Under the pieces are notes generated by a model. It was not told the origin of the DNA and did no database searches. It was given only the letters and a program-made list of their open reading frames with translations. From Micromonospora sp. CB01531 (GTDB taxonomy: Bacteria > Actinomycetota > Actinomycetes > Mycobacteriales > Micromonosporaceae), in the NCBI RefSeq assembly GCF_001905095.1, contig NZ_LWLS01000079.1, forward strand, positions 1 through 64,000: DNA of 64,000 nucleotides. The letters are read 5' to 3'. Made by a program: the position numbers and the translations under genes. Positions 50 through 60,065 of this stretch are shown here, piece by piece (the stretch's first letter is position 1; the number at the start of each line of letters is the position of its first letter).

Positions 50-1204
50 TCACGCCGCGTTTGGCAGGCTGGCGGCTGCCCAGTCCGTAGCACCGCGGGT
101 GGCGATGTTGCGGGCTGCGTTCACGTCGGCGTGCTCAGCGAAGCCGCACGACGTGCATCGGAAGGTGGATTGGTTGGGCCGGTTGGCCTTGGCGATGTGC
201 CCGCAGGCGGAGCAGCCCTGCGAGGTGTACGCCGGGTCCACGTGGACGAGGGCCAGCCCGGCCCGGGCGGCTTTGTAGGCGATGTACTGGCCGAGTTGGT
301 GGAATGCCCACGAGTGCAGGGTGACCCGCTGGGGCCGTCGGAGCCGTACCCGGTCGCGGATGCCCGTGAGGTTTTCCAGGGCGATGCCGCGGCCGGTGCG
401 TTCGGCCTCGGTCACGATCTGCTTGGCGATGCGATGGTTGGTGTCGGCCGCGAACCGGGCTTCCTTACGGCGGCGGGCCTTCAACAGCCGCTTGGCCGAT
501 TTGGTGCCGATGCGCTGGAGCTTGGCCCTCAGCCGCTGGTTGCGGTGCCTGACCCGGTTCAACCCCTTGCCGCTGTGCCGGGTCCCGTCGTTGGTGGTGG
601 CAATGTTTGCGAGGCCCAGGTCCACGCCGAGGAACCCGTCAGGCTCTTTCACCTCCATGTCAGGGATGTCGCAGGTGGCGTACAGGTACCACTTGCCGTC
701 GCGGTGCACCAGGTCGGACTCGCCCTTGCGGTGGGCGGCCAGCGTGGCGTACTGCTGCTCGGAGCAGCCGAAGCGGATGCCGGCCTGCCGCCCCGCGATG
801 GTCCAGATGGAGACCGTGCGGGTCTGCATCTGCCAGGACAAGCAGCGGTCGTCGAACGGCTGCCCGGCGTCCCGACGGAACCCGACCGGCTTCGCCTCGG
901 CGTTGCGGCGGCGTTTCGACCCGGGCTTGCCGAGGTTACCGGCACCGATGTTGGCCTTCAGGGTGGCGTACGCGCCAGCGACCTTGCGGGCGACATGGAT
1001 CGCAGGCTGAGCCGACAACCCCATCGCCTTCAGCCGACCGTAGGTGAGCCGCTGCAACGACTGCTTGCCGAACACCCGCGCCCGGTACGCCTCGCCGGAC
1101 ACCAGGTTCGCGGCCTCGTTGCACAAGCTCAGCGTGTCCCGCAACGCCGCCTCCTGGCCGGCGTCGGGGAACAGCCGCACCTGCACGACCAGCTTCACGT
1201 CCAC
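50..1204 (-). CDS. tnpB: TnpB, RNA-guided nuclease of an IS605-type element (copy A)
   Basis: 384 aa, full length for the family. The RuvC-like nuclease centre is visible: Asp195 in GVDLG, Glu277 in ALENLT and Asp360 in HADVNAARN. A four-cysteine zinc finger (CSACG at 331-335, CTSCG at 350-354) sits between the last two. TnpB proteins cut DNA using a guide RNA made from the element's right end and favour element retention; they do not perform transposition themselves. The start is GTG at 1204. A TATACT -10-like hexamer (1210-1205) abuts it, so GTG at 1198, six bases downstream of the hexamer, is an alternative leaderless start. tnpA is divergent 17 bases away. All catalytic residues are present, so it may be active. 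Confidence 0.95.
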   Translation of the reverse strand: MDVKLVVQVRLFPDAGQEAALRDTLSLCNEAANLVSGEAYRARVFGKQSLQRLTYGRLKAMGLSAQPAIHVARKVAGAYATLKANIGAGNLGKPGSKRRRNAEAKPVGFRRDAGQPFDDRCLSWQMQTRTVSIWTIAGRQAGIRFGCSEQQYATLAAHRKGESDLVHRDGKWYLYATCDIPDMEVKEPDGFLGVDLGLANIATTNDGTRHSGKGLNRVRHRNQRLRAKLQRIGTKSAKRLLKARRRKEARFAADTNHRIAKQIVTEAERTGRGIALENLTGIRDRVRLRRPQRVTLHSWAFHQLGQYIAYKAARAGLALVHVDPAYTSQGCSACGHIAKANRPNQSTFRCTSCGFAEHADVNAARNIATRGATDWAAASLPNAA

Positions 1205-26993: not shown

Positions 26994-28148
26994 TCACGCC
27001 GCGTTCGGCAGGCTGACGGCTGCCCAGTCCGCAGCACCGCGTATGGCGATGTTGCGGGCTGCGTTCACGTCGGCGTGCTCAGCGAAGCCGCACGACGTGC
27101 ATCGGAAGGTGGATTGGTTGGGCCGGTTGGCTTTGGCGATGTACCCGCAGATAGAGCAGCCCTGCGAGGTGTACGCCGGGTCCACGTGGACGAGGGCCAG
27201 ACCGGCCCGGGCGGCTTTGTAGGAGATGAACTGGCCGAGTTGGTGGAACGCCCACGAGTGCAGAGTGACCCGCTGGGGCCGTCGGAGCCGTACCCGGTCG
27301 CGGATGCCCGTGAGGTTCTCCAGGGCAATCCCGCGGCCGGTGCGTTCGGCCTCGGTCACGATCTGCTTGGCAATGCGATGGTTGGTGTCAGCCGCGAACC
27401 GGGCCTCCTTACGCCGGCGGGCCTTCAACAACCGCTTGGCCGACTTGGTGCCGATACGCTGAAGCTTGGCCCGCAACCGCTGATTACGGTGACGCACCCG
27501 ATTCAAACCCTTGCCGCTGTGCCGGGTGCCGTCGTTGGTGGCGGCAATATTTGCGATTCCCAGATCGACGCCAAGGAACCCGTCAGGCTCCTTCACCTCC
27601 ACATCAGGGATGTCGCAGGTGGCGTACAGAAACCACTTGCCGTCACGGCACACCAGGTCAGACTCGCCCCTGCGGTGGGCGGACAGCACCGCGAACTGCT
27701 GCTCGGAACAGCCGAATCGGATGCCGCTCTGTCGACCCGCCGTCGTCCAGATCGAGACCGTGCGGGAGCGCATCTGCCAGGACAGGCAACGGTCGTCGAA
27801 CGGCTGCGCGGCGTCCCGCCGGAACACGATCGGCTTCCCCTCGGCCTTGCGGCGGCGCTTCGACCCCGCTTTGCCGAGGTTACCGGCACGGATGTTGGCC
27901 GCCAGGGTGGCGTACGCGCCGGCGACCTTGCGGGCGACGTGGATCGCCGGCTGAGCCGACAATCCCATGCCTTTCAGCCGTCCGTAGGTGAGCCGCTGCA
28001 ACGCCTGCTTGCGGAACACCCGCGCCCGATATGCCTCGCCGGCGACGACGCTTGCGGCCTCGTTGCACAGGATCAGCGTGTCCCGCAACGCCGCCTCCTG
28101 GCTGGCGTCAGGGAACAACCGCACCTGTACGACGATTTTCACGTCCAC
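26994..28148 (-). CDS. tnpB: TnpB, RNA-guided nuclease (copy B)
   Basis: 384 aa, closely similar to copy A over its whole length. It has the same RuvC residues (GVDLG Asp, LENLT Glu, HADVNAARN Asp) and zinc finger (CSICG, CTSCG). Differences are scattered substitutions, such as VVAGEAYRARVFRKQ for LVSGEAYRARVFGKQ, with no stops. The start is GTG 28148, again directly after a TATACT (minus strand), with GTG two codons later as the leaderless alternative. Divergent from tnpA at 28166. Expected to be active with an omega-RNA encoded at its 3' end and RE. Confidence 0.95.
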   Translation of the reverse strand: MDVKIVVQVRLFPDASQEAALRDTLILCNEAASVVAGEAYRARVFRKQALQRLTYGRLKGMGLSAQPAIHVARKVAGAYATLAANIRAGNLGKAGSKRRRKAEGKPIVFRRDAAQPFDDRCLSWQMRSRTVSIWTTAGRQSGIRFGCSEQQFAVLSAHRRGESDLVCRDGKWFLYATCDIPDVEVKEPDGFLGVDLGIANIAATNDGTRHSGKGLNRVRHRNQRLRAKLQRIGTKSAKRLLKARRRKEARFAADTNHRIAKQIVTEAERTGRGIALENLTGIRDRVRLRRPQRVTLHSWAFHQLGQFISYKAARAGLALVHVDPAYTSQGCSICGYIAKANRPNQSTFRCTSCGFAEHADVNAARNIAIRGAADWAAVSLPNAA

Positions 28149-47954: not shown

Positions 47955-48908
47955 CTACTTGCCGACGCCGGCGGTGAGGCCGGACTGGACCTGGCGCTGG
48001 AAGACGATGTACACGATCAGGACCGGCAGCATGGCCATGGTGACCCCGGCGAAGAGGCCGGACCAGTCGGACTTGTAGCCCTGGTTGACGGAGAGTTCGA
48101 TCAGTCCCTGGGAGAGCACCTGATGCTTCGGTTCGCCGGCCACCGACTGCATGAGCAGGGTCGGCAGGTACCACTGGTTCCACTGACCGAGCACGTTGAA
48201 GATGCCGATGCTGATCAGGCCCGGCTTGGCCATCGGCAGCATCACGCTGAAGAAGGTCCGGGTGTGCGAGGCCCCGTCGACCATGGCCGCCTCGGCGATC
48301 GAGTCGGGCAGCGTCCGGAAGAACGAGTGCATGAAGAAGATCGTGAACGACAGCGACCAGGCGACGTAGACGACGATCAGCATGAGGTGCTTGTTCGGGC
48401 CGAGCAGCGGGAAGGTGATGCCCATGTTGTAGACGCCCTTGAACAGCGGCACCGCGGCCAGATAGATCGGCAGGGTCAGGCCGGAGAGGAACATGTAGTA
48501 GATCAGCCGGTTGCCGCGGAACTCGTAGCGCGCCAGGGCGTAGGCGGCCATCGAGCCGAGCAGCATGGTCAGCGTGACGCTGCCGGCCAGCACCAGCACC
48601 GTGTTGAGGAAGAACGACCCGAGGTGCCCCTCGGTCCAGGCGCGGGCGAAGTTGTCCCAGTGCAGCTTGCTCGGGATCAGCGAGAGCGGCTCGCGGATGA
48701 CCTCCGAGTCGTTCTTGAGTGCCGACATCACCACCCACACCAGCGGGTAGACCACCATCAGGGCCCAGACCACCAGGAACAGGTGGGAGAAGCCGTTGAA
48801 GATCCGGGCACCCACTCCGGCCCGGCGGGCGTCGGCCCGCCGTACGGGCGCCGGGCGGGACGGGCTGGCCTGGTCGGCCCGGCCGAGACCATGCGTCGCC
48901 GTGCTCAT
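47955..48908 (-). CDS. Carbohydrate ABC transporter permease, NgcG-like (system 1)
   Basis: 317 aa. About six membrane helices after a basic N-terminus: HLFLVVWALMVVYPLVWVV, NTVLVLAGSVTLTMLLGSMA. The ATPase-coupling EAA loop is SIAEAAMVDGASHTRTFFSV followed by LPMAKPGLIS. It is the second permease of a CUT1 sugar importer. ATG 48908 follows GGAGG. It lies 14 bases after the other permease and ends the operon, with terminator hairpins beyond. No ATPase gene is present. Confidence 0.92.
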   Translation of the reverse strand: MSTATHGLGRADQASPSRPAPVRRADARRAGVGARIFNGFSHLFLVVWALMVVYPLVWVVMSALKNDSEVIREPLSLIPSKLHWDNFARAWTEGHLGSFFLNTVLVLAGSVTLTMLLGSMAAYALARYEFRGNRLIYYMFLSGLTLPIYLAAVPLFKGVYNMGITFPLLGPNKHLMLIVVYVAWSLSFTIFFMHSFFRTLPDSIAEAAMVDGASHTRTFFSVMLPMAKPGLISIGIFNVLGQWNQWYLPTLLMQSVAGEPKHQVLSQGLIELSVNQGYKSDWSGLFAGVTMAMLPVLIVYIVFQRQVQSGLTAGVGK

Positions 48909-48921
48909 CGTCGCGCCTCCT

Positions 48922-49863
48922 TCAGTACTCGATGCGGTCACGACGGGTGATCCTCAGCTGCAGCGCGGCGAGCAGGATCGTGAAGATGGCCAGCGCGACA
49001 CCCATCGCGCAGGCGTAGCCGTACTGGCCCTTCTGGAACGCGGTGAAGTTGAGCACCGACGCGAAGATCTCGCTGGCGTGGTTAGGGCCGCCCTGGCTCG
49101 GGGTCATGACGAAGACCAGGGCGTACATGTCCAGCGCGATGAAGCCCAGGTAGACCCAGGCGACCGAGATGGTGTCCCGCAGCAGCGGCAGGGTGACCCG
49201 GAAGAAGGTGTGGAACCGGTTCGCCCCGTCCAGGATCGCCGCCTCAAAGATGTCCTTCGGGATCGACTGCATCGCCGCGGAGAAGAGCACCATGTAGAAA
49301 CCGGCCCCGCTCCACACCGCGATGAGCAGCAGCCACCACAGCACCGCCGGTACGCCGAGGAAGGGCTCCGGATCGGCGGTGAACGCGATCGGGTTGTCCG
49401 CGTCGACCAGCCCGATCTTGATGAGCATCCCGTTGATCAGGCCCTGACCGTCGGTCCGGTAGATCTGCTGCCACATGACGGCGATGACCACCAGCGACAG
49501 CACCTGCGGGAAGAAGAAGATGATTTTGTAGAGGCCGGAGCCGAACACCCCGCGGATGCCGGCCCTGTCCTCGCGTCCGCCCACATTGAGCAGGAACGCG
49601 AGGAACAGGGCCAGCGCGATGGTGAACAGCGGCACGGTGACCAGGAAGAAGACGTTGTGCCAGAACGCCTTCCGGATCAGCTCGTCGGAGAGCAGCCGGA
49701 CGTAGTTGTCCAGCCCGACGAAGTTCTGGGAGCCCGAGAACCCACCCCAGTCGGTCAGCGAGTATCCCGCCGCCTGCACGAACGGCCACACCACGTAGAG
49801 CAGGTACAGCGCGACAGGCAGGGCCAGGAAGCCCGTGACGAAACGCGCGACTCCGTGCCGCAT
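48922..49863 (-). CDS. Carbohydrate ABC transporter permease, NgcF-like (system 1)
   Basis: 313 aa. Membrane segments LALPVALYLLYVVWPFVQAA, NVFFLVTVPLFTIALALFLA and IIFFFPQVLSLVVIAVMWQQ. The EAA loop is DIFEAAILDGANRFHTFFRV plus LPLLRDTISVAWVYLG. It is the first permease of a CUT1 importer, partnered with the gene at 47955, and lies 22 bases downstream of the binding-protein gene in the same operon. Confidence 0.92.
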   Translation of the reverse strand: MRHGVARFVTGFLALPVALYLLYVVWPFVQAAGYSLTDWGGFSGSQNFVGLDNYVRLLSDELIRKAFWHNVFFLVTVPLFTIALALFLAFLLNVGGREDRAGIRGVFGSGLYKIIFFFPQVLSLVVIAVMWQQIYRTDGQGLINGMLIKIGLVDADNPIAFTADPEPFLGVPAVLWWLLLIAVWSGAGFYMVLFSAAMQSIPKDIFEAAILDGANRFHTFFRVTLPLLRDTISVAWVYLGFIALDMYALVFVMTPSQGGPNHASEIFASVLNFTAFQKGQYGYACAMGVALAIFTILLAALQLRITRRDRIEY

Positions 49864-49885
49864 TGGACTGCCTCTCTCGAACGGA

Positions 49886-51298
49886 TCAGGCGGTGCGGGT
49901 CTGCTTCTTGATCGACGAGTCCTTGGCGACCTTGTCGGCGGCCGTCTGCATCTTGTCGATGAACTGCTGCGCGGTGAGCCGGCCGGCCATCAGTTCCTCG
50001 GAGAGGTTCTGGCTCTCCTTGTCCAGGTCGGCGTAGAAGTCCTGGAACTTGACCGAGATGAGCTCGCTGCCGCCGTTCTTCATCAGGGCGTTCGCGCTGG
50101 ACAGTGCCGAGTCCTGCACGTTGTCGCCGGAGCCCTTGGTGGAGGCCAGCGACTTGGTCAGCTCGGCGAACTTGGCCGAGCCCTCCTTCGACAGGATCGC
50201 CCGCAGGAACTCCTTGGCGGCGGCCTTGTTGGGGGCCTTGCTCGGCACGACGAAGCCCTCGCCGGAGGCGGCGAACACGTCCTTCGGCGCCTTGTCGCCC
50301 GCGTTGGACCAGTAGTCGGAGATCGTGAGCTCGAAGCCCGGCGGGATGGTGGCCGACATCTCGTTCTTCAGCCAGGTGCCGACCTGGATGAACGCCGCCT
50401 TGCCGTCGAGCCAGGCCTGCTGCGACTGGGTGTGGTCGAGCTTGCCCGGCAGCAGCAGCTTGTCCTTGACGAGCTTCTCCCACGGCTCCAGCGCCTTGAG
50501 GACGCCGTCGGCCTTCCACGCGTTGTCCTTGAGGTTGTCGATGTCGACGACAACCTGCTTGCCCGCGGACTTCCAGATGCTCGCCATCAGCGCCCATCGG
50601 GGGTAGTAACCGTGGACCGCGTCGTGGACGTACGGCGCCATGCCCTTGGCCTTGATCTTCGGAGCGAGCGCGAAGAACTCGTCCCAGGTCGTGGGCGGCT
50701 GCCAACCCTCCTTCTTGAACAAGGCCGCGTTGTACCAGTTGCCCCAAACCGTGAACGCGACGTTGACGACGTAGAACTTGCCGTTCTGCGTGCCGTCGGA
50801 CACCGTGCCGGGCAACAGGGTGTCGGCGACCGTGCCCTCGCCGTCCCACGCGGGGGCGGCGAGCAGGTCGTCGAGCGGCTCGATGGCACCCTCGTTGATC
50901 AGCGTGCTGCGGTCCATCATGTCCGCACCCGAGTTCATCACCAGGTCACTCGGCTGCGTCGCCATCTTCGGCTGCTCTTCGGTCTTGATCTTCTGAGTCG
51001 AGCTCATGTTGACCGTGACGTTGGCGTGCTTGGCGTTGAAGATGACCTTGTCTTCCTTCGCCCACTGGTCACCGAGGCCACCGTTGAAGATGACCACCTT
51101 GACCGCGCTGCCGTCCTTGACGCCGAACGGGTTGTCCTTGCTCTTCGCGCCGCCGGTGTCGTCGGACTTCTTCGGCTCGCTGCCGGCGCAGGCGCTGAGC
51201 AGGCCCATCGCCGGGGTCGCGAGCAGGCCGGCCGCGGCGGCCCGCCGCAGCAGCGTCCGCCGGCTGAGGTCGCCGAGGTTCTCGGGAGTAACCGACAT
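49886..51298 (-). CDS. Sugar-binding lipoprotein, NgcE-like (system 1)
   Basis: 470 aa. Tat signal with lipobox: RRTLLRRAAAAGLLATPAMG, then LLSAC (lipidated Cys about 34). Type 1 extracellular solute-binding fold: VKVVIFNGGLGDQWAKEDKV, TQPSDLVMNSGADMMDRSTL, TVWGNWYNAALFKKEGWQPP, AFIQVGTWLKNEMSATIPPG and the terminal AADKVAKDSSIKKQTRTA. Resemblance to N-acetylglucosamine/chitobiose-binding NgcE proteins and the adjacent SIS, RpiR and GlcNAc-kinase genes support amino-sugar uptake. AAGGAGAG precedes ATG 51298. Confidence 0.9.
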   Translation of the reverse strand: MSVTPENLGDLSRRTLLRRAAAAGLLATPAMGLLSACAGSEPKKSDDTGGAKSKDNPFGVKDGSAVKVVIFNGGLGDQWAKEDKVIFNAKHANVTVNMSSTQKIKTEEQPKMATQPSDLVMNSGADMMDRSTLINEGAIEPLDDLLAAPAWDGEGTVADTLLPGTVSDGTQNGKFYVVNVAFTVWGNWYNAALFKKEGWQPPTTWDEFFALAPKIKAKGMAPYVHDAVHGYYPRWALMASIWKSAGKQVVVDIDNLKDNAWKADGVLKALEPWEKLVKDKLLLPGKLDHTQSQQAWLDGKAAFIQVGTWLKNEMSATIPPGFELTISDYWSNAGDKAPKDVFAASGEGFVVPSKAPNKAAAKEFLRAILSKEGSAKFAELTKSLASTKGSGDNVQDSALSSANALMKNGGSELISVKFQDFYADLDKESQNLSEELMAGRLTAQQFIDKMQTAADKVAKDSSIKKQTRTA

Positions 51299-51323
51299 GT
51301 TCGTCTCTCCTTGTGGTGTCGGG

Positions 51324-52073
51324 TCAGGCGGTGCGCCGGAGGCGCCCGGCGTACCGCGACTCGAGGGCGAGGTTGTGCTCGTCCCCACCGGGGACGTTGG
51401 CGGAGAGGTAGATAGGGGGTACCTCTCCGGCCTGGTGGAACCGTCGTACGACCTCGGCGGTCAGCAGCTGCGCCAGCAGCGCCGCGGTGACCGACGAGAC
51501 CGCACAGACCGCGCCGCCGCCCTCGAGCGGCAGCAGTGCGTCGCCGTATGGCGCGCCGTTGTCCAGCACGACGTCGGCGAGGTCGGCGAGCCGGTGCCCG
51601 GACGGGTGCCGCGGGGCGACCCGTGCCGTGTGCTCGACCGAGGTGACCGCGATCAACGGGTGGCCGTGCGTCCGGACCAGCGCCGCCAGCTCGACCACCG
51701 AGCCGTTGATGCCAGACTGGGAGGCGACCACGAACACGTCCTCGGGCTGCGGCGCCGCGAGGGCGTAGAGCTGGTGCGCCACGGCCGGGTCGCGTTCCAG
51801 CTTGGGGTCGGCGAGCACGTCGCGGGGCGCGTCACCGTGCAGCACGAGGTCGTGCAGGGAGAGTCGGTTGGTGGGCACCAGCCCGCCGGCCCGGGCCACC
51901 AGCTCGGCGGCGAACGCCTCGGAGTGGCCGGCGCCGAAGGCCTGGAGCACCCCACCGGCACGCAGCCCGGCGGCGATCAGGTCGGCGGCCCGGTCCACCG
52001 CCGCCGCCTGCGTATCGACCAGCCGGTCGAGCACCGGCCGGACGGCGTCCGCGTACCGCTGGGCGCTGATCAT
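51324..52073 (-). CDS. SIS-domain phosphosugar-binding protein (UPF0309-like)
   Basis: 249 aa. The sugar-phosphate fold shows GGVLQAFGAGHSEAFAAELV near residue 40, EDVFVVASQSGINGSVVELA, HPLIAVTSVEHTARVAPRHP and LADVVLDNGAPYGDALLPLE, as in the UPF0309/SIS_2 group. It probably isomerises or senses an amino-sugar phosphate produced after import. ATG 52073 overlaps the rpiR stop as ATGA. The binding-protein gene starts 25 bases after its end, so regulator, SIS protein and transporter form one operon. Confidence 0.88.
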   Translation of the reverse strand: MISAQRYADAVRPVLDRLVDTQAAAVDRAADLIAAGLRAGGVLQAFGAGHSEAFAAELVARAGGLVPTNRLSLHDLVLHGDAPRDVLADPKLERDPAVAHQLYALAAPQPEDVFVVASQSGINGSVVELAALVRTHGHPLIAVTSVEHTARVAPRHPSGHRLADLADVVLDNGAPYGDALLPLEGGGAVCAVSSVTAALLAQLLTAEVVRRFHQAGEVPPIYLSANVPGGDEHNLALESRYAGRLRRTA

Positions 52074-53032
52074 GAGGTGGCCCCCTTCGCGGCCTTGTGT
52101 CCGTCGACGGCCTGGGCGGTACGCCGGAAGGCCGCGTGGGCGCGGTCGTGGGTGCGCTGCGCCACGGCGATGTAGAGCAGGTCGAGCACGACAAGCTGAG
52201 GGTGCCGGGCGGAGAGCGCGTCGGGCCGGAAGGTGGTGGCCTGGCTGGCGGTGACCAGCACGATGTCGGCAAGCTCGGCCAGCGGCGAGCGGGGGAAGCC
52301 AGTCAGCGCGACCGTGGTGGCCCCCCGGCTGCCCGCCTCCGCGAGCAACTCGATGGTCTCCCGGGTCTGCCCGGTGTGCGAGATGCCCAACGCCACGTCG
52401 CCGACACCGAGCAGGGCCGCGCTGGCCAGCCCCTCGTGCACGTCGCTCCAGGCCCAGGCGGCCACCCCGATGCGGTGCAGGCTGAACTGCATCTCCTCGC
52501 CCACCAGCGCGCTGCCGCTGGCGCCGAAGATGTTCACCCGGCTCGCGCCGGCGATGGCCACCGCTGCCTTTTCCACCTCGGCGAGGTCGAGCAGCGCGGC
52601 GGTGTCGTGCATGGCGCGGGTGTCGGCGGCCATGATCTGGTCGAGGACCCGGGACAGCGGGTCACTGGGCTGGATCTCCCGGCCGATGTCGACGGTCCAG
52701 CCCGCCGAGCGCGCCCGGCCCGTCTCCGCGGCGATGCCGAGCCGCAGGTCGGCGTAGCCCTCGAAGCCCATCGCCCGGCAGAACCGGGTGATGGTCGCCG
52801 GTGACGTGCCGCTGCGCTCGGCCAGCTCCACGATGGTGGCCCGGGCCGCCGCCTCCGGGTCGCTGAGCACGTGCTCAGCGACCCGGCGCAACGCCCCCGT
52901 CAGCTCTCCAGCCCCGGCCCGGACCCTGGCCAGCACTCCGTCGGAGGAAACCGCCACCGCACCCCGCCGGTCGACCGCGTCGGCGTCGACCACCGCGGTC
53001 CCCGCGGGGGTGTCCACCTCGTGATCAACCAT
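52070..53032 (-). CDS. MurR/RpiR-family transcriptional regulator
   Basis: 320 aa. The N-terminal RpiR helix-turn-helix (about 38-115) has ELTGALRRVAEHVLSDPEAA and VELAERSGTSPATITRFCRAMGF split by the turn. The C-terminal SIS effector domain (about 160-290) has RVNIFGASGSALVGEEMQFS and DVALGISHTGQTRETIELLA. It would bind an amino-sugar phosphate and control this operon and, before the IS insertion, probably the divergent nagK. It is first in the operon, with an AAAGG ribosome site and operator-like repeats upstream. Confidence 0.92.
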   Translation of the reverse strand: MVDHEVDTPAGTAVVDADAVDRRGAVAVSSDGVLARVRAGAGELTGALRRVAEHVLSDPEAAARATIVELAERSGTSPATITRFCRAMGFEGYADLRLGIAAETGRARSAGWTVDIGREIQPSDPLSRVLDQIMAADTRAMHDTAALLDLAEVEKAAVAIAGASRVNIFGASGSALVGEEMQFSLHRIGVAAWAWSDVHEGLASAALLGVGDVALGISHTGQTRETIELLAEAGSRGATTVALTGFPRSPLAELADIVLVTASQATTFRPDALSARHPQLVVLDLLYIAVAQRTHDRAHAAFRRTAQAVDGHKAAKGATS

Positions 53033-53054
53033 GGGACGCCTTTCGGAAAAGAGT

Positions 53055-53126
53055 GTTAACTGTTAGTGGTAAAAGTTCTTACTGACGCCCCCTCCGTGTC
53101 AAGGGCATGGGCGAAGTTTTCAAACT
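53055..53126. promoter_or_regulatory. rpiR promoter/operator region
   Basis: A minus-strand TTGACA (53102-53097) is a perfect -35, with TAAGAACT 15 bases on as a possible -10. Overlapping it are GTAAAAGTTCTTAC (53069-53082, imperfect palindrome) and GTTAAC (53055-53060). A second palindrome, AGTTT-TC-AAACT, lies at 53115-53126 on the far side. These are good candidates for RpiR sites serving both directions. Confidence 0.55.
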
Positions 53127-53220
53127 GTTACCTCGCGCAAAGCCACCGACCGGACCGTGGATCTTGCCTCGGCGACCCGGGCAGACCAGCATGAAGGGCC
53201 ACAACGCCCGCGGGGGAACT

Positions 53221-54360
53221 GTGACCTGGTTGTCGATATTGTCAGCACGTCTATCTACGGCCGAACTCAAGCGGACGTTCACCACGTTGAAGGCCGACCT
53301 GTGGGCCAGTGACCCGTTCCTGGCTCGCCAACTGCGCAAGCACTGGAAGCGAGGCCGCAACCACACACACGATCAGATCGTCGTCCGCGCCGACAAGCAC
53401 AACATCATCGTCGACGGGCGGGGCCGGTTGTGGCTGGTCGTACCCGGTCTGCAACGCCGCAAGATGGTCAAGATCCCGCTGTCCACGACTGTCGCGCCGA
53501 CGAGCACGCTGAACCTGATCCTGCGCCGCGGCCGAGTCGAGGTCCACTACCAGATCGACGCGTCGCAGATGTGGTCGTCACAGCGGCCGTGCGGCGATGC
53601 AACGGTCAATGTGGACAAGTGCTACACCGAAGCCCTCACCGACTCCGACAGCGGCCGGCACGGTAGGCGCCTCGGCGCACTGCTGACGGCCGAGGCGGAC
53701 CGCCTGAAGGAACGCAACCGGCGCTGGGCGAAGCTCCCTTCGATCGCCAACACAGCCGCCCTGCGCGGCGACCACGCGAAAGCGCAACGGATCAAGACCA
53801 ACAACCTCGGGACGGTAAAGCGGGACCGGCAGGCCGCCCACCACCGGGCGCGGGTGCGCACGGAGAACTTCACCGCCGTGCACGAGGTCGTCGACAAGGC
53901 CCCCACCGTGATCGCCGAAGACCTCACCAAACGCTTCACCAGCCGCAAGAAGCTACCTAAGAACATCAACCGGCATCTCGCCGCGGGGACCAAAGGAGTC
54001 ACCACCGAGGCCCTGAAAAGCGTGTCGGAGCGCAGAGGTTCTGCGCACGTTCCCGTCAACGCCGCCCACACCTCACAAACCTGCCACCACTGCGGCGACT
54101 TCGGCCGCCGCAGCGGAGACTGGTTTCACTGCACCCGCTGCCCAGTGGTGTGGCAAGCAGACGTGAACGCCGCGATCAACATCCTGCAAAGAGCCGGCGC
54201 CCCCGACATCGCCCTACACACCCCACACCAGCGGGTGAAGCAGATCCTGCAGGACCGGACCGATCGCCACCGGACCAGACTGCCGGTCCAGGACTCCAGC
54301 CCGGCGCCAGCCGAACGGAGAGCGAACCATCCCAACAGCTCAACAACGAGCAACCAGTAG
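53221..54360 (+). CDS. tnpB: TnpB-family RNA-guided nuclease, solitary, N-terminally short
   Basis: 379 aa from GTG 53221 (GGGGG nearby); an in-frame ATG at 53107 would give 417 aa but would translate the operator region. Numbering from 53107: RuvC residues Asp170 (VNVDKCYTEALTDSDS), Glu271 (VIAEDLTKRF) and Asp352 (QADVNAAINIL); zinc finger Cys326/329/342/345. It is a different TnpB lineage from copies A and B, and no tnpA is present. The part before RuvC is shorter than the roughly 190 residues usual in TnpB, so the wedge/REC region may be truncated. It lies between rpiR and nagK, 16 bases before nagK. Confidence 0.85.
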   Translation: MTWLSILSARLSTAELKRTFTTLKADLWASDPFLARQLRKHWKRGRNHTHDQIVVRADKHNIIVDGRGRLWLVVPGLQRRKMVKIPLSTTVAPTSTLNLILRRGRVEVHYQIDASQMWSSQRPCGDATVNVDKCYTEALTDSDSGRHGRRLGALLTAEADRLKERNRRWAKLPSIANTAALRGDHAKAQRIKTNNLGTVKRDRQAAHHRARVRTENFTAVHEVVDKAPTVIAEDLTKRFTSRKKLPKNINRHLAAGTKGVTTEALKSVSERRGSAHVPVNAAHTSQTCHHCGDFGRRSGDWFHCTRCPVVWQADVNAAINILQRAGAPDIALHTPHQRVKQILQDRTDRHRTRLPVQDSSPAPAERRANHPNSSTTSNQ

Positions 54361-54376
54361 GAAGCAGGCCCAGCGG

Positions 54377-56683: not shown

Positions 56684-57589
56684 CTATTTGAGCTGGCCAG
56701 CGGTGAGGCCCGCCTGGATCTGCCGCTGGAACGCCGCGTAGACCACCAGCACCGGCAGTGTGGCGATGGTCAGACCGGCGAACAGGCCGCTGAAGTCGCC
56801 CTGATAGCCCTGGCTGACCGCGAGCGCCGTGAGCCCCTGGGCCAGGACGTACTTCGAGTCGTCGCCCTGCATGAGCACCTGCGGCAGGATGAACTGGTTC
56901 CAGTGGCTCAGGAAGTTGAAGATCGCCACGCTGATCAGTCCCGGACGCGCCATCGGCAGCATCACCCGGAAGAACAGCCGGAAATGGCCGCACCCGTCGA
57001 TCAGGGCCGCCTCCGCGACCGCGGTCGGCAGGGTGCGGAAGAACGCGGTAAGGAAGAACACCGTGAACGGCAGTGAGTACGCCGCGTACACCAGCATGAG
57101 GCCGGGCCAGGTGCCAAGCAGACCGGCGTTGCGGACCACAAAGAAGAGCGGGACGAGGGCGAGGAAGACCGGGAACATCATGCCGCCGACGAACAGGTAG
57201 TAGACGACCTGACGGCCCCGGAACTCGTAGCGCGCGAAGACGTACGCCGCGGTCGCGCCAAGCAGCATCGTCAGCGTGAGCGAACCGGCCACCACGATCG
57301 CGCTGTTGAGGAAATACCGGCCGATGTGCGCCTCGGTCCAGGCCCGGGCCCAGTTCTCCAGCCGCAGCGCGCCGGGCAGCCCCCACGGGTCGGAGAGGAT
57401 CTCACCGTCGCTCTTGAACGAGCTGAGGAACATCCACAACAACGGCAGCATGGTCAGCGCGCCCCAGACCACCAGGAAGCCGTGCGACGCGACGTTCACC
57501 ACGCCCCGCTCGCGGCGGGCCGGCCCCAGGTCGCGGCGGGTCGGGCCCAGCTCCGCGTCCGTCGCGGTGGACCTGTCCAGGGTGGTCAT
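56684..57589 (-). CDS. Carbohydrate ABC transporter permease, NgcG-like (system 2)
   Basis: 301 aa. Helices HGFLVVWGALTMLPLLWMFL, NSAIVVAGSLTLTMLLGATA. EAA loop AVAEAALIDGCGHFRLFFRV then LPMARPGLIS, and C-terminal FQRQIQAGLTAGQLK. It is clearly paralogous to the system 1 permease at 47955, which shares the GLTAG ending. ATG 57589 overlaps the preceding permease stop (ATGA). Last gene of the second importer operon; no ATPase gene follows. Confidence 0.92.
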   Translation of the reverse strand: MTTLDRSTATDAELGPTRRDLGPARRERGVVNVASHGFLVVWGALTMLPLLWMFLSSFKSDGEILSDPWGLPGALRLENWARAWTEAHIGRYFLNSAIVVAGSLTLTMLLGATAAYVFARYEFRGRQVVYYLFVGGMMFPVFLALVPLFFVVRNAGLLGTWPGLMLVYAAYSLPFTVFFLTAFFRTLPTAVAEAALIDGCGHFRLFFRVMLPMARPGLISVAIFNFLSHWNQFILPQVLMQGDDSKYVLAQGLTALAVSQGYQGDFSGLFAGLTIATLPVLVVYAAFQRQIQAGLTAGQLK

Positions 57590-58494
57590 GAGTGCTCGAT
57601 CCTCTCGCGCCGGGCGGCCCGCAACGCCAGCACCGCCACCGTGAGGGTCAGGAAGAACATCACCACGCCGATTGCCGAGGCGTACCCGAACTTACTCTCG
57701 CTGCCGAACGCGGTCTCGTACATCCGCAGCCCGATGACGTCGGAGGAGAAGTTCGGCCCCCCGTTCGTCATCAGCTGGACGAGGATGAAGCCGTCCAGCG
57801 CCGCGATGGCCAGATAGATCCAGGCGACCTGCACGGTGTCCCAGAGCAGCGGGATGGTGATCCGGCGCAGCGTGACCCACCGGGACGCGCCGTCGAGCAG
57901 CACCGCCTCGTAGATGTCCCGCGGGATGGCGGACATCGCGGCGCCGAAGAGCACCACGTAGAAGCCGACGTTGCTCCACACCATCACGGCGAGCACGCAC
58001 CAGAAGGCGGTGCGCGGATCGCCGAGCCAGGTCGGCGCGGGCAGGCCGACAGCGCGCAGCAAACCGTTGAGCAGGCCGTTGTTCGGGTGGTAGATCTCCC
58101 GCCAGAGCAGCGCGATGATCACCACCGGGAGCACCTGTGGGAAGAAGTAGACCAGCCGGTAGAAGGCTGACCCGCGGACTCCGGTGACGCCGGCCCGGTC
58201 GCCGCGCCCACCCATCGACAGCATGGTGGCGAAGAACAGGCCGAGGCTGATGGTCAGCACCGGCACCACGGCGAGCAGGATGGCGTTGTTGCCGATCGCG
58301 TTCCACACCCGGTCGTCGTGCAGCATCGTCCGGAAGTTGGCGAGACCGACCGGGTCGGCTTGCGCCGAGTAGCCCAGCCAGCTCGTGGTCGAGATCTGGA
58401 ACGCCTGCAGATAAGGCGAGATCACGAACAGGACGTAGAGCGCCAACGGCGGCAGCAGGAACGTGATGATCAGCGGGTACTTGCCATGTCGCAC
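57586..58494 (-). CDS. Carbohydrate ABC transporter permease, NgcF-like (system 2)
   Basis: 302 aa. Helices YPLIITFLLPPLALYVLFVI, NNAILLAVVPVLTISLGLFF and LVYFFPQVLPVVIIALLWRE. EAA loop DIYEAVLLDGASRWVTLRRI plus IPLLWDTVQVAWIYLA. GTG 58494 is preferred because GGAGGAGG lies about eight bases upstream. It forms a heterodimeric CUT1 channel with the next gene. Confidence 0.92.
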   Translation of the reverse strand: MRHGKYPLIITFLLPPLALYVLFVISPYLQAFQISTTSWLGYSAQADPVGLANFRTMLHDDRVWNAIGNNAILLAVVPVLTISLGLFFATMLSMGGRGDRAGVTGVRGSAFYRLVYFFPQVLPVVIIALLWREIYHPNNGLLNGLLRAVGLPAPTWLGDPRTAFWCVLAVMVWSNVGFYVVLFGAAMSAIPRDIYEAVLLDGASRWVTLRRITIPLLWDTVQVAWIYLAIAALDGFILVQLMTNGGPNFSSDVIGLRMYETAFGSESKFGYASAIGVVMFFLTLTVAVLALRAARRERIEHS

Positions 58495-58559
58495 GGGGCG
58501 ATCCTCCTCCAACCGGCCAGGGCGGTGGGGGCGGGCCGACGCCCACCCCCACCGGCTGG

Positions 58560-59975
58560 CTACGCGGCCCGCTTGTACTTCTTGATCGAGCTGTCCTGGG
58601 CGATCGAGTCGGCGCCCTTCTGGCACTGGTCGAGGAACTCGGCCGGGCCGATCCGCCCGCTGAAGAACTCGCCGCACGCGGCGTCGACGAGCTCGCGCTC
58701 CAGCTTGCGGTAGTAGTTGTTGTAGACCCAGTTGAAGCCGTTGCTGCCGGACGCGTCCAGCGCCTTCGCCACGGTGCTCAGGCCGAACGGCAGCTCGACG
58801 CCCTCGGTGGCGCCGGCGACCACGGGCAGGCTGGAGACCTTCTTGGTGAAGTCCTGGGCGCCCTTCTTGGAGAGCATCACCCGCAGGTACTCCAGGCCGC
58901 CGGCGAGGTTCTTGGCCTTGGCCGGGACGATGAACGGCTCGCCCGCGGTGCCCCGGATCGCCTCGAAGGGCAGCTTGTCGCCGCTGCCCAGGCTGGGCGT
59001 GGGCACGACGGTCATGTTGAAGCCGGCCGGGGTGACCTTCGCCTGCTCGTTCTCCAGCCAGGAGCCGCAGGATATGAAGGCGGCCTTGCCCTGGCACCAG
59101 GCCGTCTGCGACTGGATGTGGTCCAGACCCGGCGAGCCGTCCAGGATGTACTTGTCCTTGACGATCTGGTGCCACGCGTCGGCGGCCGCCTTCATCGCGT
59201 CGGACTTCCACGCGTTCGGCTCGAGGTTGTCGATCGCCATCGCCACCGACGGTCCGCCGAGCTTGATCGCGGTGGAGATTAGCGGCCAGCTCATGTAGCG
59301 GGGGTGCTTGCCCGCGTACGTCCACGGCGCGATGCCGGCGGCCTTGATCTGCTTGCAGAGTGCGATGTGCTCGTCCCAGGTCTTCGCGTACTGCCAGTTG
59401 CGTTCAGTGAAGAGTTTGGTGGAGTACCAGATGCCGTAGGCGGTGTAGGTGTAGTTGAGGACGAGGAACTTCCCGTCGTATGAGCCGACCTCGACGGTGC
59501 CGGGCAGCAGCGTGTCGCGCACCTTCTTGCCGGGGATGTCGAGGCTCGGGGCGTCGAGCAGTTCGCTCAGGTCGGCGACCGCGTTCTGGCTGACCAGGCC
59601 GTTGAAGTCGATCTGGCCGGCACCGGAGTTGTTCACCACGTCCGGCGGGTTGCCGTCGACGAAGCGCGGCTGCAGGGTCTTGTTGATCTCCTGGGTGGCG
59701 GCGTGCTTGATCTCCGCCTTGGGGTACTTCTCCTTGTACAGGGCCTCGTGGGCCTTGGCGTACTCCTCACCGAAGCCGCCGTTGAAGATCACCACCTCGA
59801 GCGGGGCGTCCTCCTTGACGCCGAGCGGGTTCTGCTCGCTCTTGGTGCCCTTGTAGGTGTCGGTGTCCTTCTTGTCGTCGCCGCCGGAGGTGGCGCAGCC
59901 GGCAAGCAGGCCGGCGGCGGGGGTGGCCAGCAGGCTGGCGGCGGCGGTGCGCCGCAGGATCTCACGCCTGTTCAT
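58560..59975 (-). CDS. N-acetylglucosamine/chitobiose-type binding lipoprotein, NgcE-like (system 2)
   Basis: 471 aa. Tat signal MNRREILRRTAAASLLATPA and lipobox LLAGC (Cys about 28). Binding fold: EVVIFNGGFGEEYAKAHEAL, DVVNNSGAGQIDFNGLVSQN, DGKFLVLNYTYTAYGIWYST, SQTAWCQGKAAFISCGSWLE, TAGEPFIVPAKAKNLAGGLE and terminal SIAQDSSIKKYKRAA. It is the closest of the two binding proteins to known NgcE (by remembered pattern), which binds GlcNAc and chitobiose in Streptomyces. GAGGAG precedes ATG 59975. It leads the operon with the two permeases. Confidence 0.9.
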   Translation of the reverse strand: MNRREILRRTAAASLLATPAAGLLAGCATSGGDDKKDTDTYKGTKSEQNPLGVKEDAPLEVVIFNGGFGEEYAKAHEALYKEKYPKAEIKHAATQEINKTLQPRFVDGNPPDVVNNSGAGQIDFNGLVSQNAVADLSELLDAPSLDIPGKKVRDTLLPGTVEVGSYDGKFLVLNYTYTAYGIWYSTKLFTERNWQYAKTWDEHIALCKQIKAAGIAPWTYAGKHPRYMSWPLISTAIKLGGPSVAMAIDNLEPNAWKSDAMKAAADAWHQIVKDKYILDGSPGLDHIQSQTAWCQGKAAFISCGSWLENEQAKVTPAGFNMTVVPTPSLGSGDKLPFEAIRGTAGEPFIVPAKAKNLAGGLEYLRVMLSKKGAQDFTKKVSSLPVVAGATEGVELPFGLSTVAKALDASGSNGFNWVYNNYYRKLERELVDAACGEFFSGRIGPAEFLDQCQKGADSIAQDSSIKKYKRAA

Positions 59976-60065
59976 CGCATCTCCTCGGTTCGGGTACGGG
60001 CGGCCCGCCGAGGGTGGGGTACGGCGGCCGCAGCGTCGAGGCACGGTGGGGTTACGCGTTGCTTG

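What the first reader, a model, noticed from the sequence alone, without database searches (positions are those of the whole stretch)
53033..54376. tnpB inserted between divergent rpiR and nagK
The regulator, SIS and importer operon and the GlcNAc kinase are a typical divergent unit. Here a solitary tnpB occupies the space between them: the operator palindromes remain on the rpiR side and nagK is 16 bases after the tnpB stop. nagK may now be driven by tnpB transcription, linking amino-sugar use to an RNA-guided nuclease gene.
Basis: partly seen in the sequence, partly recalled or inferred. Interest (0 to 1): 0.65.

Follow-up and report, generated by a model that had tools for sequence, protein, structure and literature searches.

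The report
Decayed tnpB transposon in nagK's ribosome-binding site
A broken copy of a small transposon carrying an RNA-guided nuclease gene sits in the ribosome-binding site of a sugar-kinase gene; most of its relatives lie in the same position in front of other genes, because the sequence they insert behind (AGGAG) is the bacterial ribosome-binding sequence.

Summary
ORF 53107-54360 is a TnpB remnant filling the rpiR-nagK gap, 16 bp before nagK. It is not a regulatory innovation. It is an internally deleted IS607-family element (about 53217-54367): tnpA and the first ~104 residues of TnpB are gone, and it has changes at 19 of 224 otherwise invariant residues, the most of 32 copies. Closely related Micromonospora genomes lack it; there rpiR and nagK lie ~153-206 bp apart.
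The RpiR-side sites and a conserved putative nagK promoter remain intact left of the insert. So the tnpB remnant probably rides on nagK's promoter, not the reverse.
The insertion lies inside nagK's Shine-Dalgarno: CAGGGAG|GCCCAGCGGATG. This is a family pattern. Of 46 insertion sites, 35 (26 of 37 independent genes) have a start codon of an ORF of at least 150 aa, same strand, 4-12 nt after the right end; random expectation is 10%, and 17% after any AGGAG. Target genes include ruvA and single-copy ribF. The right end (TAGGAAGCAG) supplies a replacement Shine-Dalgarno. AGGAG is the published TAM of related IS607 TnpBs; I found no paper linking it to ribosome-binding sites. Expression is inferred, not measured.

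The parts
52070..53032 (-). rpiR/murR-family regulator gene, first gene of the leftward SIS and ABC importer operon
   Evidence: Pfam HTH_6 and SIS; 93-99% identical in 29 relatives
53053..53085 (.). conserved candidate operator block 1 (GTGTTAACTGTTAGTGGTAAAAGTTCTTACTGA)
   Evidence: nearly invariant in the alignment of 16 relatives; operator role inferred
53096..53103 (-). conserved CTTGACAC on the minus strand, candidate -35 of the rpiR operon
   Evidence: conserved in the alignment of 16 relatives; role inferred
53109..53131 (.). conserved candidate operator block 2 (GGGCGAAGTTTTCAAACTGTTAC)
   Evidence: invariant in 16 relatives; role inferred
53164..53192 (+). putative native nagK promoter, TTGCCT-N17-CAGCAT, left of the insertion
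   Evidence: TTGC and CAGCAT and their spacing conserved in relatives; in short-gap relatives it lies 6 nt from the nagK ATG. The generic sigma-70 scan did not flag it
53211..53217 (+). remnant of the native flank (CGGGGGA, for CGCAGGGAG in relatives), the TAM-like left flank
   Evidence: comparison with L019, L020, L021 and L023
53217..53257 (+). left end of the IS607-family element; exact first base uncertain by about 2 nt
   Evidence: about 80% identity over 46 bp to the left end of tnpA-less copy L055, also L088 and L107; 0 of 100 shuffles as good
53258..54360 (+). truncated tnpB: residues ~105-472 of the full-length protein, fused in frame to the left end and native DNA
   Evidence: 86-87% nucleotide identity to copies L015 and L016 starting exactly at 53258; relaxed constraint
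54040..54340 (+). likely omega/reRNA scaffold region overlapping the tnpB 3' end
   Evidence: third-codon-position conservation rises from ~0.80 to ~0.92; no Rfam match at threshold
54358..54367 (+). right end TAGGAAGCAG; contains the tnpB stop and an AGGAAG Shine-Dalgarno substitute
   Evidence: right-end motif shared by the copies, with flanks diverging immediately after it; SD pairing energy -8.8 versus about -5.0 kcal/mol for random upstream DNA
54368..54376 (+). native remainder of the nagK ribosome-binding site spacer (GCCCAGCGG)
   Evidence: identical in empty sites L020 and L023
54377..55366 (+). nagK-like BadF/BadG-family sugar kinase, intact
   Evidence: Pfam PF01869; dN/dS about 0.24-0.33, similar to uninterrupted relatives

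Best explanation
An IS607-family transposon (TnpA serine recombinase plus TnpB) inserted just 3' of the GGGAG core of the nagK Shine-Dalgarno, in the same orientation as nagK. It then lost tnpA and the TnpB N-terminus by internal deletion and is decaying. The native nagK promoter and the RpiR-side sites are intact upstream, so nagK is most likely still transcribed from its own promoter, now as a ~1.2-kb-longer message carrying the dead tnpB remnant. The element's right end (TAGGAAGCAG, overlapping the tnpB stop codon) replaces the lost Shine-Dalgarno so that nagK is still translated. This is the usual position for the family: its target/TAM is (A)GGAG, which is the Shine-Dalgarno core. Copies therefore often sit between a ribosome-binding site and a start codon, and such copies, once stripped of tnpA, persist there. 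Shown: element identity, truncation, empty sites, SD position, family-wide enrichment, sequence of the replacement SD. Inferred: transcription from the native promoter, translation from the right-end SD, and survivorship as part of the cause.
For: Copies with tnpA (208 aa serine recombinase) and tnpB (472 aa, frameshifted in L016) lie elsewhere in the same genome; window homology starts at TnpB codon ~105. Left and right ends are both present. Relatives have a 153-206 bp gap and an uninterrupted CAGGGAG|GCCCAGCGGATG. 35 of 46 sites (26 of 37 independent genes) have a start codon 4-12 nt downstream, versus 10.3% random (p ~6e-18 on the 37) and 17% after any AGGAG (p ~2e-12). Downstream ORFs are real genes (RuvA, RibF, SbcC-like, LacI, DeoR and others). 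The methyltransferase empty site CCGAAGGAG|GGGACACAGTG matches the left and right flanks of L015 closely, without duplication. ribF is single-copy in both genomes carrying the insertion, so the insertion is tolerated. SD energy after insertion at nagK is -8.8 kcal/mol versus -10.9 native and -5.0 for random upstream DNA. The TAM of related IS607 TnpBs is AGGAG in 18 of 22 strains (PMC11061315). An out-of-order copy, L162, also has ATG 12 nt after its right end.
Against: No transcript or protein data. Copies with intact tnpA show the start-codon position in only 4 of 9 cases, versus 31 of 37 for copies without it (Fisher p 0.025), so targeting alone does not explain the pattern and selection is probably involved. 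The window's own left flank has drifted (CGGGGGA), so its target sequence is read from relatives. The putative nagK promoter is a conservation-based call that the generic scan did not report. Start codons were called by ORF length, not by annotation.
Confidence: 0.82

Rival explanations
1. One reading: nagK has come under tnpB transcription, so amino-sugar use is coupled to an RNA-guided nuclease gene.
For: tnpB and nagK are co-directional with 16 bp between them, so co-transcription is likely.
Against: The conserved putative nagK promoter is upstream of the insert; tnpA and the tnpB start are deleted here; TnpB lacks ~104 N-terminal residues and is decaying.
Confidence: 0.08
2. Domesticated regulator: the truncated TnpB and its guide RNA act as a TldR-like RNA-guided repressor or sensor at nagK.
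For: The frame is open; the RuvC Asp and Glu residues, the zinc-finger cysteines and the 3' RNA region are retained; the default guide would match nagK's 5' end.
Against: Unique to this genome; highest rate of change at invariant residues among 32 copies; the N-terminal part is missing; the nuclease motif is not specifically inactivated as in TldRs.
Confidence: 0.03
3. The insertion silenced nagK, which is on its way to becoming a pseudogene.
For: The native SD AGGGAGG was split, and the promoter is now ~1.2 kb from the start codon.
Against: nagK is intact with dN/dS similar to uninterrupted relatives; the right end supplies an SD-like sequence; the same element class is tolerated in front of single-copy ribF.
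Confidence: 0.1
4. The SD association in the family is purely survivorship: insertion occurs at any AGGAG and only copies in front of genes persist.
For: tnpA-intact (presumably younger) copies are at start codons in 4 of 9 cases, tnpA-less copies in 31 of 37.
Against: Even 4 of 9 exceeds the 10-17% background, though the numbers are small; the target motif itself is the SD core.
Confidence: 0.4

Closest known systems
IS607-family insertion sequences (TnpA serine recombinase + TnpB)
   Same: TnpA/TnpB order with a short overlap; no target duplication at the one closely reconstructed site; G-rich target; tnpA often lost leaving solitary tnpB.
   Different: H. pylori IS607 inserts at (G)GG with no other preference (PMC6188088); this family inserts behind (A)GGAG and is found mostly at Shine-Dalgarno sites.
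RAGATH-18-associated IS607 TnpBs (ISFba1; PMC11061315)
   Same: TAM 5'-AGGAG in 18 of 22 strains matches the left-flank motif seen here; reRNA at the tnpB 3' end.
   Different: These proteins are longer (472 versus 387 aa) and no Rfam match was found for the RNA; the paper does not mention Shine-Dalgarno or start codons in its main text.
TldR (TnpB-derived dead repressors)
   Same: Solitary TnpB-like gene next to a host gene.
   Different: Here the copy is truncated, unique to one genome and under relaxed constraint; no sign of selection for a regulatory role.
IStrons
   Same: Elements that limit damage at the insertion site; group B IStrons are IS607-type and use GG targets (PMC4227781).
   Different: IStrons splice out of RNA; here the right end appears to supply a replacement ribosome-binding site instead.

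Membership tests
IS607-family element | Serine-recombinase TnpA upstream of TnpB | tested here: not met
   tnpA is absent from the window copy (deleted), but close relatives in the same genome have it (L015, L016). The window copy is filed as a deleted derivative, not as a complete member.
IS607-family element | Left and right ends homologous to other copies | tested here: met
   Left end: 0 of 100 shuffles; right end TAGGAAGCAG.
IS607-family element | Insertion at a G-rich target without target-site duplication | tested here: met
   L015 empty site; nagK empty site in relatives, though the window's left flank has drifted.
Active RNA-guided TnpB nuclease | Full-length protein including the N-terminal region | tested here: not met
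   Starts at residue ~105 of 472.
Active RNA-guided TnpB nuclease | RuvC D-E-D and zinc-finger cysteines | tested here: met
   VDKCYTEA, IAEDLT, QADVNAA and CHHC...CTRC motifs present in the translation; neighbouring invariant residues changed.
Active RNA-guided TnpB nuclease | Guide RNA expressed from the right end | not testable with these tools
   Only raised third-position conservation at the 3' end; no Rfam match at threshold.
TldR-type repressor | Inactivated RuvC with conserved genomic association | tested here: not met
   RuvC residues retained; association not conserved in relatives.

The most novel reading that the evidence does not exclude
A lineage of IS607 TnpB transposons uses the Shine-Dalgarno core (AGGAG) as both its integration target and its TnpB TAM. 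It lands between ribosome-binding site and start codon in the gene's own orientation, brings a replacement Shine-Dalgarno in its right end, takes its transcription from the host gene's promoter, and becomes locked in place because the host gene then depends on the element's end for translation.
Probability: 0.5. Interest if true: 0.7.

Novelty: new variant of a known kind. Interest (0 to 1): 0.48.

Why it matters
The window locus alone is ordinary transposon debris. The family pattern behind it gives a biological reading of the puzzling AGGAG TAM of IS607 TnpBs: it is the one short motif found in front of a large share of bacterial genes. It suggests how a transposon can sit in front of genes as important as ruvA and ribF without killing the cell, and why solitary tnpB genes of this family so often lie immediately upstream of host genes. 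It is directly testable with reporter fusions and transposition assays.

Tried and rejected
(1) Unknown filler DNA at 53211-53257: first looked foreign (one match in the genome); resolved as the element's left end. (2) The 53107 start as the real TnpB start: rejected, since those codons are native intergenic DNA. (3) Known RNA families for the guide scaffold: none at threshold. (4) Generic promoter and terminator scan of the gap: no promoter and nothing above shuffles; conservation was used instead. (6) Class-wide TnpB search: apart from G410 (65% identical) the hits were distant TnpBs whose ends were not mapped. (7) A ruvA empty-site search failed on a parameter error and was not repeated; ribF and the methyltransferase were used. 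(8) A literature search for RpiR with NagK in actinobacteria gave nothing evident on this operon, so its substrate remains inferred from family names.

Full report
What is there. The rpiR-nagK gap of the window (53033-54376) holds a TnpB-like ORF, 53107-54360, ending 16 bp before nagK. The same genome carries fuller IS607-type copies: on contig C93 (L015), a 208-aa serine recombinase tnpA overlapping a 472-aa tnpB, and on C75 (L016), the same with a frameshifted tnpB. Aligned to these, the window copy begins at TnpB codon ~105 (53258) and ends at the shared right end TAGGAAGCAG (54367). The 47 bp before 53258 look foreign but match the left end of tnpA-less copies in other Micromonospora (about 80% over 46 bp for the best, 0 of 100 shuffles as good). 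So the insert has both transposon ends and an internal deletion that removed tnpA and the TnpB N-terminus. It is decaying: 19 of 224 residues that are otherwise at least 95% invariant are changed, the highest of 32 copies (next highest 9 of 223).

The empty site. A nagK search of 121 genus genomes gave 30 loci (the window's own and 29 relatives); all 29 relatives have rpiR and nagK ~153-206 bp apart without tnpB. In the nearest relatives the uninterrupted sequence is CAGGGAG|GCCCAGCGGATG or differs from it by one to a few bases, so the element entered inside nagK's Shine-Dalgarno (AGGGAGG). No other genome of 160 in the genus shares the window's junction. The palindrome-rich blocks at 53053-53085 and 53109-53131, a minus-strand CTTGACAC, and a TTGCCT-N17-CAGCAT element just left of the insertion are conserved in 16 relatives. 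In relatives with a short gap this last element lies six bases from the nagK ATG, as expected for a promoter of a leaderless message; calling it the nagK promoter is an inference.

Consequence for nagK. The putative native promoter lies upstream of the insert and points into it, so the likely transcript runs through the dead tnpB into nagK. nagK is intact and evolves at a dN/dS similar to that of uninterrupted relatives (about 0.24-0.33 versus 0.19-0.30). The lost Shine-Dalgarno (-10.9 kcal/mol with the 16S tail) is replaced by the element's AGGAAGCAGG (-8.8); random upstream DNA gives about -5.0.

The family pattern. Mapping the right end of related copies gave 45 further distinct sites. Counting the window, 35 of 46 have an ATG or GTG starting an ORF of at least 150 aa on the same strand 4-12 nt after the element; random positions give 10.3%, and with ATG alone it is 20 of 46 versus 2.2%. 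Collapsing sites at the same gene leaves 26 of 37 (p ~6e-18 against random; ~2e-12 against the 17% of AGGAG sequences that precede such starts). The downstream proteins are real genes with proper N-termini, including RuvA, RibF, an SbcC-like ATPase, LacI, DeoR and LuxR-type regulators. Two more empty sites were read: the methyltransferase next to L015 (CCGAAGGAG|GGGACACAGTG in a relative, matching L015's left and right flanks) and ribF (GGGGAG|GAGCGGCATG). ribF is single-copy in both genomes where the element precedes it. In one of these tnpB is wrecked but the right end is intact (L072). A copy outside the order (L162, 65% identical) shows the same layout.

Mechanism and limits. Published biochemistry gives AGGAG as the TAM of 18 of 22 IS607 TnpB strains tested (PMC11061315), while H. 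pylori IS607 needs only GG (PMC6188088). Left flanks here read GGAG, or a close form of it, in most copies whose left end could be found. Target choice and later selection cannot be separated fully: copies with intact tnpA are at start codons in 4 of 9 cases, copies without it in 31 of 37 (Fisher p 0.025). I read this as insertion behind AGGAG, enriched at Shine-Dalgarno sites, followed by preferential survival there because coding insertions are lost and the host gene comes to depend on the element's end. No paper found in the held library links this TAM to ribosome-binding sites; most subscription papers are not held, so novelty is provisional.

Verdict. The locus itself is ordinary: a dead transposon in a sugar-use gene pair. 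The positional rule of the element family is the interesting part.

Noticed in passing
window 77-529 (-) and 26994-28148 (-): Two further TnpB-like ORFs in the same window, from a different TnpB family (34-37% identity to this one); the second is an apparently intact 384-aa frame.
   Followed up: no
L022, L024, L026, L029 and other short-gap relatives: In a subset of Micromonospora the rpiR-nagK gap is shorter and the conserved CAGCAT lies 6 nt before the nagK ATG, suggesting leaderless nagK mRNA in one clade and an SD-led mRNA in the other.
   Followed up: partly
L058, L064, L085 (sbcC-like gene); L056, L083 (ruvA); L072, L075 (ribF); L057, L063, L091 (eccC-like): Different genomes carry the element in front of the same gene, either inherited or inserted repeatedly; L072 and L075 carry well-diverged elements.
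   Followed up: partly
window 54040-54340 and right ends of related copies: Third codon positions of tnpB become nearly as conserved as first and second positions in the last ~300 nt, consistent with an overlapping guide-RNA scaffold not matched by Rfam.
   Followed up: partly
window 47955-51388 (-) and 56684-60044 (-): Two similar-looking ABC sugar importers (binding protein plus two permeases) flank the rpiR/nagK region.
   Followed up: no
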